Shown here one piece after another: positions 26,939 to 63,680 of a DNA stretch of 64,000 bases. The notes below the pieces were generated by a model. The model was not told the DNA's origin. It saw only the letters and a program-made list of their open reading frames with translations, and searched no databases. Source of the DNA: Cladocopium goreaui (taxonomy: Eukaryota; Sar; Dinophyceae; Suessiales; Symbiodiniaceae). The position numbers were made by a program, and so were the translations under genes. The stretch covers positions 1 through 64,000 of the forward strand of contig CAMXCT020001858.1 of the NCBI GenBank assembly GCA_947184155.2. The letters run 5' to 3'. Numbering within the stretch: the stretch's first letter is position 1; the number at the start of each line of letters is the position of its first letter.

Positions 26939-29900
26939 CTAACCCCAGGCCCTTGGCCCCACGGGTGCCCCAACTGCTTGTGTTTGCTGCATCTCTAAGT
27001 TTCTCCTGTGCGATCTACGCTGCTCTTTCTTCTTCTTCAGGACCTCGTTGTAGAGTCGATCGCGGTAGTCCTCTGTGGGGTGGACGTTGCGGGTAGACTT
27101 TGTTGACGATCAGACCTATTCGCCACATATGGGTTTTGTTCAAAGGAAACCAGCCCAAAACCATTGGTTTCCCGTTTTTGTTTGGATGATTTTGTGATTC
27201 AAGCCAAGAAACACCCACAGGTCCATCCCATGTTCTTATCTATTGGTGATTATGGTTATACCGTATACCGCTGTATACCCGTAGTTATATATATACATAC
27301 ATATATGGGCACACCCATCATGACATGATACTTCCAACCAGTCGCCTGCACCGTAAGTTTGGTGTTATCATCGATGGGAATTCGAATCGTACCTCAGTCG
27401 CTTCGACAAGATGAAAGGTGGATGGGAGAGCTTCGACAAGATCAACTGGAAAACACCAGTCACTTCCAACAAAAACGAAGGATTTGGGCCCAATCACCAA
27501 CAGAATTTGAGCCATTGTGGCCACCGATTGCAGAACATTTGAAAAAGTCTTCCTCTCTTGGCCGCATTGTCGACCAGCACCACAGTAAATATCGAGGTTT
27601 TGGTGACGAGCTATGACCAGCACCACTTCTATCTGGGCTTCGCACGGTCACAATCGAATTCATCATCCGGGTTATGAAACTGAACAACGTACCTCTCCAA
27701 GCACTGGTGCGGCGGCGCTTAAGCGCTTTCTGACGTCAACGGGAGCTGAAGATTTTTTAGCCTTCCGGCGGGCTGGCGAAAATACCGGGGATGTACAGAC
27801 TATTACGCTAGTGTTAGAAAATAGATTGTTTTCCCCACGAACCATTCGGAATTGACTGATTTTGTTTGGCCCTCTGAATTTGGAGAATTCATCAGCCTGA
27901 ATTGTTTAGCCATTTGGAGGTGTTCGAAAAATGCGGGTCCCCCATTTTTCATCCAAAATTAGACCATTTTAGTATTGAAACCCATGCTTTTGGGGATCCC
28001 ACATTTTAAGAAACCTCCATTTGGGGATGATTCACATTGATTCACCATCTACAGTGACGTCGCTGGCGCACGGATGGCGCAAGGCATCCTTCGCAGTGAT
28101 GCGCTTGTTAGGGTTAAACCTCAGAGTGGCAGAGAATCCACCGCAGATTGGTCTGAAAACGAGGTGCCACCATCTTTTTCCACAAAATTTCCATCGTTCA
28201 TCATTTTCCCACTTCCCTGTTGGGTCATTTTGGGGCATATGGCATACCCTATGTTTGGACCGACCCAGATTTGATTTCCAAAGACCACTGTACAACTATG
28301 TGTGTCCATTGCACTTGCAACCAGATTCTACTGACATTATAATATATATATATTATAATATATATATATATTATATATAATATTATATATAATATTATAT
28401 ATATATCATATTATATATATATAGTTGACTTCCGAAAGGTCTTTTTGTGGGGTCATTGGACTAGCAGACCACGTCTGGAATCTCGCAGTTGCTGGTGGCA
28501 AAGTTGCATTCCGTTGGCGAACACGATTCGACCGATGTGGGCCATGGATGGCCATGGTCAAGTTAGATCGGAAACGAGGTATGGTTATCCCTTTTGCTTC
28601 ACGGAAAGCAAGAATATGAAGCTCCATCTAAGAAGAACAAGGACAAACTGTTGCATCATTGAAACACCGACGTGTTTCAGCCACATTTCAGGCTTAGAGT
28701 TCAAGATGCACCCACCAACAAAAAGAGATCTTCCCCTTCTCTAGGCATCCGTTTTCCCCGCTGCGCATCTGGGCCCCCCGGCTGTAAGCAAAGTCGCAAG
28801 AGATCAAGGGCTTCCACACTTGCTGATGGGAACATCTCGCTCAATGGCCTCCAAGTGAAAACCACAAAATTTTCATGGGCTCAGCTAATCAGTTGATCAT
28901 CATGTTATAAAAATATGTCTTTTAAAAATGTTCTAAAATTGGGGAGCAGATCCCCCATTTTCAGAATCATCTTTGGATCGCACATTGAAGTCATGGTCCG
29001 CTGGATAGCTGCACAGGGATTAAATAGTCAGAGCTTTCGCGATCCACAGAAACTGGGCGACTTAAGAACTGGACTCTCAGTTCATAGGAGGAGGATGATG
29101 ACGATGATGACGATAGTGATGATCCCCAATGTATAAAGTGTGAGTTAATGACCACAAACAAACACTGGTTTAGCAGCCATTGCTCACCTATCTATTGAAG
29201 AGCGGGCTCTCCAAAAATCCAATGCGCCCAACAAGGGTTCAAAATCACCCAAGAATCCCATACGGACATCTATATATGTGCATACTGTATGTACATATGT
29301 ATGATATGTAATGTAATGTAATGTAATGTAATGTAATGTAAATGTAATGTAAATGTAATGTAAATCTAATGTAATGGTAAGGTAAGGTAATGTAATGTAA
29401 TATGTATATATATATATATGCGTGTACTTCTGGCTGAATCAAAATGATTCGGGCCATTTTGGGATAGTTACCCCAATCCATTCACCATCATTTCAATCAC
29501 AAGAACAGTGAAGTCGTTAGAATTCATCCACATACCCTAGGGTAAACTTAACAGTTCGATGTGGAAAATCGATGGTTTCCCTTGGAAAATCATCATTTCT
29601 TCCCATCACATCCCCATGAATTCCGCCCCATTCCTCGGCCGGCTCATGGGTAGAGACTCCAACATCGTGGCCTTGGTCGCAGCGGGTTGCACTCGTGGCC
29701 GTGTGTATGAATTCATATATCATGTATTATGTATGCATATATATATATATCCATCATGTATATACATGTGTATATATATAATGTGTATCATACATATGAT
29801 ATATATATATATATCATATGTAATATGTATAATATATATATATATACATTGGTAAATCATCATATTTCACTAACCTGAATATCAAGGCCATTTGGGGATG

Positions 29901-63680: not shown

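What the first reader, a model, noticed from the sequence alone, without database searches (positions are those of the whole stretch)
26939..63680. One MAP kinase gene whose introns contain complete unrelated genes on the same strand
Exons 1-9 of an ERK7-like kinase (63.7-53.8 kb) end inside the Trp codon of the activation segment. Exons 10-19 (33.2-26.9 kb) resume at the following Tyr with matching phase, and the kinase has no missing or duplicated part. Between exons 6 and 7 lies a calcineurin-B-like gene. Between exons 9 and 10 lie a full P450 and at least one more gene. Same-strand nesting means that the transcript of the host must skip entire spliceable genes, or that the nested genes come from separate (perhaps trans-spliced) transcripts. 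A kinase and a Ca2+-phosphatase subunit sharing a locus is also functionally suggestive. An assembly mis-join is the main alternative, but two independent, phase-perfect interruptions make that less likely.
Basis: partly seen in the sequence, partly recalled or inferred. Interest (0 to 1): 0.88.

Follow-up and report, generated by a model that had tools for sequence, protein, structure and literature searches.

The report
Dinoflagellate kinase gene harbouring nested genes
In a dinoflagellate alga, one signalling-kinase gene is stretched over tens of thousands of bases because complete unrelated genes sit inside its introns in the same orientation, an arrangement already reported as common in a related alga.

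Summary
A MAPK15/ERK7-like kinase reads on the minus strand in 19 exons (63680-26978). A complete 12-exon calcineurin-B-like gene lies in intron 6 (7,179 bp) and a complete 10-exon P450 in intron 9 (20,617 bp), both on the kinase's strand. Mis-assembly is unlikely: high-identity ERK7 exons were found only on this contig of the 1.17-Gb own assembly; both ends of intron 9 are single-copy apart from short repeats; and an Effrenium voratum gene model fuses kinase exons 1-5 to calcineurin-B exons 2-9, showing the same linkage in another assembly. The spliced P450 matches a protein from a 1,565-base contig at 422/424 residues. Corrections: the kinase does not stop at 26939; it has a probable exon 20 and a probable tail exon near 5.5 kb, which would make an MFS transporter a third nested gene. 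A further gene in intron 9 is unconfirmed, and no functional kinase-phosphatase link was shown. The kind is known: 6.5-8.4% of predicted Polarella glacialis genes lie in introns (PMC7245778). How splicing skips a nested gene remains untested. New member of a known kind.

The parts
61613..63680 (-). Host kinase exons 1-6: 63680-63646, 63297-63222, 63132-63049, 62338-62276, 62046-61964, 61664-61613
   Evidence: 100% identical to P0001 over residues 1-130
54434..61612 (-). Host intron 6 (7,179 bp, GC-AG), holds the calcineurin-B-like gene
55870..61009 (-). Nested gene 1: calcineurin-B-like, 178 aa, 12 exons: 61009-60994, 60579-60533, 59975-59934, 59320-59282, 59171-59115, 58927-58856, 57891-57847, 57247-57215, 57015-56947, 56444-56394, 56074-56056, 55916-55870
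   Evidence: 176/178 identical to P0121; EF-hand Pfams; PDB calcineurin B 1mf8_B 1.2e-51
53819..54433 (-). Host kinase exons 7-9: 54433-54374, 54167-54120, 53859-53819
33202..53818 (-). Host intron 9 (20,617 bp, GC-AG, phase 2), holds the P450
42134..47959 (-). Nested gene 2: cytochrome P450, 465 aa, 10 exons: 47959-47777, 47600-47486, 47283-47081, 46235-46136, 45441-45324, 45033-44983, 44408-44301, 43826-43692, 42726-42491, 42282-42134
26978..33201 (-). Host kinase exons 10-19: 33201-33156, 32503-32437, 31111-31074, 30317-30264, 29671-29634, 28848-28783, 28119-28072, 27692-27646, 27392-27346, 27070-26978
   Evidence: 95.1% identical to P0001 over this part
26184..26216 (-). Probable kinase exon 20 (VPQQYQAAGAQ), between AG and GT, in phase
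   Evidence: resembles VSQQTYQASAGQ of P0001; among the two best places for only 2 of 95 relatives' tails
15946..21891 (-). Probable nested gene 3: MFS transporter, 475 aa, 4 exons: 21891-21433, 20531-20370, 16937-16304, 16118-15946; nested only if the 5.5-kb tail exon belongs to the kinase
   Evidence: (model built without a relative), Pfam MFS_1 84.7 bits v cut-off 33.4
5496..5552 (-). Probable kinase tail exon (AAPCQYYSAADYQQSQYAR; ends approximate)
   Evidence: local score 62 to the end of P0001; 200 shuffled tails: median 42, 95% 50, largest 64; best place for 3 of 95 relatives' tails and second for 1; AG before, GC after

Best explanation
A real, same-strand nested gene locus in a dinoflagellate of the order Suessiales. 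The kinase gene is the host; a complete calcineurin-B-like gene sits in its intron 6, a complete P450 in intron 9, and probably an MFS transporter between its last exons. Most likely way of working (inferred): the host's pre-mRNA is cis-spliced from exon 6 to 7 and from exon 9 to 10, discarding the nested genes as intron; the nested genes get their own mature mRNAs from separate or longer co-oriented transcripts, their 5' ends made by spliced-leader trans-splicing at an AG ahead of their first exon. Shown here: anatomy, open frames, complete nested genes, single locus, the same kinase-calcineurin-B linkage in another species, and spliced forms of each protein (or close relatives) in transcript-like contigs. 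Inferred: separate transcripts, trans-splicing, skipping.
For: Complete models with canonical dinoflagellate splice sites: 42 introns in four genes, donors GC 23, GA 10, GT 9, acceptors AG 42 of 42, next base G in 39 of 42. The models were built by hand with these rules and, except MFS, guided by relatives, so this count is not independent. GC/GA donors are described for dinoflagellates (passages of PMC11453091). Kinase 94-96% identical to the best 11 relatives. Calcineurin-B 176/178 to P0121, P450 422/424 to P0241; their longest contigs, 674 and 1,565 bases, are too short to hold the 5.1- and 5.8-kb genomic genes, so they are spliced forms. E. voratum model P0125: kinase residues 1-114 identical (114/114), then 130/134 identical to calcineurin-B residues 7-140, on a contig of up to 86,097 bases. 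Own assembly: 6 of 112 kinase matches lie on the window's contig, the rest are at most 44% identical; intron-9 ends single-copy apart from short repeats. Precedent with full-length transcripts in P. glacialis.
Against: No RNA or long DNA reads were at hand; no transcript of this very species is shown to join exon 6 to 7 or 9 to 10 (closest kinase protein is 96% identical). P0125 is a gene prediction; it shows linkage downstream of kinase exon 5, not that kinase exons 6 onward follow the calcineurin-B gene. No second species was seen for the P450 nest. The intron-6 ends were not tested for copy number. No full-length DinoSL was found in the window, which is neutral since it is added in trans.
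Confidence: 0.83

Rival explanations
1. Assembly mis-join: the kinase halves or the nested genes come from different chromosomal places.
For: Dinoflagellate genomes are repeat-rich; the window holds 26 copies of a 13-base terminal motif of a repeat and long tandem arrays, which can mislead assemblers.
Against: No N in the window; two phase-exact interruptions; no other locus with high-identity ERK7 exons; intron-9 ends single-copy apart from short repeats; the kinase-calcineurin-B linkage recurs in E. voratum.
Confidence: 0.08
2. The kinase is not made as one cis-spliced mRNA: the segments are separate transcripts joined by trans-splicing, or the locus yields only truncated or fused products (for example kinase exons 1-5 joined to calcineurin-B).
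For: An E. voratum gene model of exactly that fusion exists. In human cells nested genes can cause forced exonization and premature polyadenylation of the host (abstract of PMC3192792).
Against: Relatives have full-length kinase proteins; the fused model reads through what in the window is intron on both sides of the calcineurin-B part, as a merged prediction would; the kinase frame and motifs are intact here.
Confidence: 0.06
3. The nested genes are recent insertions of dead or duplicated copies.
For: Dinoflagellates re-insert processed transcripts (passage of PMC7245778).
Against: They have 12 and 10 exons with introns, so are not processed copies; frames are intact; 176/178 and 422/424 identity to transcript-like proteins; linkage shared with E. 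voratum for calcineurin-B.
Confidence: 0.03

Closest known systems
Intron-nested genes of Polarella glacialis (Stephens et al. 2020, PMC7245778; passages seen)
   Same: Suessiales; complete genes inside introns of multi-exon hosts, up to 18-24 per host; reported as backed by full-length transcripts
   Different: The example given there has repeated light-harvesting genes in an alanine-tRNA ligase gene; strand of nested genes is not stated in the passages seen. Their pipeline sought nested genes only in introns over 10,000 bp, so a 7.2-kb nest such as intron 6 here would have been missed
Nested protein-coding genes of animals, for example those studied by Kaer et al. 2011 (PMC3192792; abstract seen)
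   Same: Gene within an intron of a host
   Different: No spliced-leader trans-splicing; here the nested genes have 12 and 10 exons of their own
Co-oriented gene clusters of dinoflagellates (passages of PMC11453091)
   Same: Same-strand crowding of unrelated genes
   Different: There genes lie side by side; here they lie inside another gene

Membership tests
Same-strand intron-nested gene | Host exons on both sides form one gene | tested here: met
Same-strand intron-nested gene | Nested gene complete and on the host's strand | tested here: met
   calcineurin-B and P450
Same-strand intron-nested gene | Host exons follow the third nested gene (MFS) | tested here: inconclusive
   tail exon at 5.5 kb, score 62 v shuffles up to 64; 4 of 95 tails
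Same-strand intron-nested gene | Host and nested genes both transcribed and spliced in this species | tested here: inconclusive
   P450 422/424 to a protein from a short, hence spliced, contig; kinase only from a 96% relative
Same-strand intron-nested gene | Continuous DNA, not a mis-join | tested here: inconclusive
   single locus and E. voratum linkage support it; no reads
MAPK15/ERK7 kinase | MAP kinase domain with HRD, DFG and a TXY activation motif | tested here: met
   [14 protein letters not shown] in the translation; Pfam. Motif names recalled
MAPK15/ERK7 kinase | Groups with ERK7 rather than other MAP kinases in a tree | not tested
   only similarity: sources name several relatives mitogen-activated protein kinase 15; best PDB match 6v6a, 600 bits v 298 for the best ERK/MPS1-type match
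Dinoflagellate introns | GT, GC or GA donors, AG acceptors | tested here: met
   42 of 42, by construction in part
Spliced-leader trans-spliced mRNA | DinoSL at the mRNA 5' end | not testable with these tools
   needs RNA

The most novel reading that the evidence does not exclude
The kinase-calcineurin-B nest is old, shared by this species and Effrenium, and is kept because the two genes share one primary transcript: choosing between cis-splicing the host across the intron and trans-splicing the leader onto the nested gene (or fusing host exons 1-5 to it) sets the ratio of a MAP kinase to a calcineurin subunit.
Probability: 0.06. Interest if true: 0.85.

Novelty: new member of a known kind. 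Interest (0 to 1): 0.4.

Why it matters
It is a clean, complete example of multi-exon genes nested on the same strand in one dinoflagellate host gene, with a hint that one nest is conserved in another genus. It makes a question directly testable: how the spliceosome skips a whole spliceable gene, trans-splice acceptor included. It also warns annotators: the E. voratum record fuses host and nested gene into one protein, and a pipeline that looks only in introns above 10 kb would miss the 7.2-kb nest.

Tried and rejected
Rfam (gathering) and ARAGORN: no hits. DinoSL relics: no match with up to 3 mismatches; an 11-base end of it matches exactly once at 5385-5395, and 2 matches at one mismatch against 1.33 expected, so not significant. 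Looping-out by inverted repeats: no exact inverted repeat of 12 bases or more between the two flanks of the calcineurin-B gene in intron 6; in intron 9, 85 inverted against 111 direct 12-mers, many from the TACCCTCTGGTAA repeat, so no special pairing. Related loci in genome contigs: 12 pattern matches, none confirmed. Further gene in intron 9: see the observation check. Shared function of kinase and calcineurin: nothing found for it; not tested further. A blast-based tail test timed out and was replaced by a local alignment test. Copy number of the intron-6 ends and of the P450 in the own genome: unanswered.

Full report
Setting. The window is positions 1-64000 of contig C1858 (127,911 bases) of an unnamed 1.166-Gb assembly with 6202 contigs. 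Gene structure and relatives mark a dinoflagellate: GC, GA and GT donors, best protein matches among dinoflagellate data sets with Polarella and Effrenium names among the named rows. The species is not known; the window is 42.9% G+C, lower than the 50.7% reported for Effrenium voratum genomes (passage of PMC11114475), and the calcineurin-B protein differs from the E. voratum model at 4 of 134 residues, so it is probably not E. voratum. That is inference.

The host. Nineteen exons on the minus strand splice to a 362-residue open frame. It is 94-96% identical to the eleven best relatives, and the part before the first nest is 100% identical to P0001, the part after the second 95.1%. Both nest junctions fall inside ungapped alignment blocks in all 120 relatives listed, which are the best 120 of 7065. 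The kinase domain is complete. Sources name several relatives mitogen-activated protein kinase 15. No tree was made.

The host is longer than reported. Of 120 listed relatives 116 have at least 375 residues, and seven close ones have 95-141 residues beyond exon 19. A 33-base in-phase candidate exon 20 follows at 26216-26184. The end of P0001 matches the minus strand at 5.55-5.50 kb with score 62; shuffles of that tail gave a median of 42, 95% below about 50 and a largest value of 64 in 200. Of 95 relatives' tails tested, this place was best for 3 and second for 1, and the exon-20 place was among the two best for 2; tails are poorly conserved, and the middle of the tail was not found. I hold the tail exon as probable (about 0.65).

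Nested gene 1. Twelve exons between 61009 and 55870 give 178 residues, 176 identical to P0121, with EF-hands and calcineurin B as the PDB match. It lies wholly inside host intron 6.

Nested gene 2. Ten exons between 47959 and 42134 give a 465-residue P450. P0241, from a contig of at most 1,565 bases and standing for 47 sequences, is identical at 422 of 424 residues. The genomic gene spans 5.8 kb, so P0241 represents a spliced form from this or a very close species. It lies wholly inside host intron 9.

Nested gene 3, probable. A four-exon MFS transporter of 475 residues lies at 21891-15946 (Pfam MFS_1 84.7 bits). It is nested only if the tail exon is right; its model was made without a relative.

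Is it real DNA? High-identity kinase exons occur only on this contig: 6 of 112 matches are there, and the others are at most 44% identical. The 1.2-kb stretches at both ends of intron 9 match nowhere else except in short repeat parts. The intron-6 ends could not be tested. In Effrenium voratum a 272-residue predicted protein, P0125, consists of kinase residues 1-114 (114 of 114 identical), a short linker, and calcineurin-B residues 7-140 (130 of 134 identical); of 266 proteins in hand it is the only one with both parts. The simplest reading is a merged gene model of the same nest. It shows linkage, not the position of kinase exons 6 onward. No second case was found for the P450 nest.

How it works. 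The best-supported view is cis-splicing of the host across the nested genes and separate mature mRNAs for the nested genes, capped by spliced-leader trans-splicing. DinoSL trans-splicing of dinoflagellate transcripts is established (passages), although only 13.5% and 50.4% of full-length Polarella transcripts carried it. I found no structural device that would loop out a nested gene. Which transcripts exist here was not tested.

What is known. In Polarella glacialis 4898 (8.4%) and 3359 (6.5%) of predicted genes are nested in introns, with up to 18 and 24 per host, and the authors say full-length transcripts confirm it (passages of PMC7245778). Their pipeline sought them only in introns over 10 kb. 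Searches for dinoflagellate nested genes in the library gave that paper and no other dinoflagellate genome paper on the matter; 'nested' does not occur in the main text of the 2024 review PMC11453091 or of PMC11114475. An intron of 26,372 bp is known in Crypthecodinium cohnii (passage). So the finding is a well-resolved new case of a known kind, with a possible conserved nest as the added interest.

Noticed in passing
window, 26 sites such as 5599-5702, 30101-30204, 39742-39847, 53248-53355: A short repeat with inverted ends TACCCTCTGGTAA: 26 matches at up to one mismatch against 0.05 expected; one copy recurs widely in the genome (3349 first-look candidates, 40 scored). Looks like a small inverted-repeat transposon.
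   Followed up: partly
G000:C6030:109789-117623: Five EF-hand matches on one strand, four of them 1.85-1.86 kb apart, 39-43% identical to the calcineurin-B query: a tandem gene array.
   Followed up: no
G000:C1: 37 of the 112 kinase matches lie on contig C1 in long open frames up to 1546 aa, over more than 7 Mb: probably an associated bacterium, not the alga.
   Followed up: no
window 7961-14628: Long tandem arrays of roughly 200-260-bp units with CAG/AGC runs, in what would be the kinase's last introns.
   Followed up: no
P0125 (Effrenium voratum): A database protein that joins kinase exons 1-5 to calcineurin-B exons 2-9: probably a merged gene model, possibly a real fusion.
   Followed up: partly
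window 5385-5395 (-): Exact 11-base match to the 3' end of DinoSL just downstream of the probable tail exon; may be chance.
   Followed up: partly
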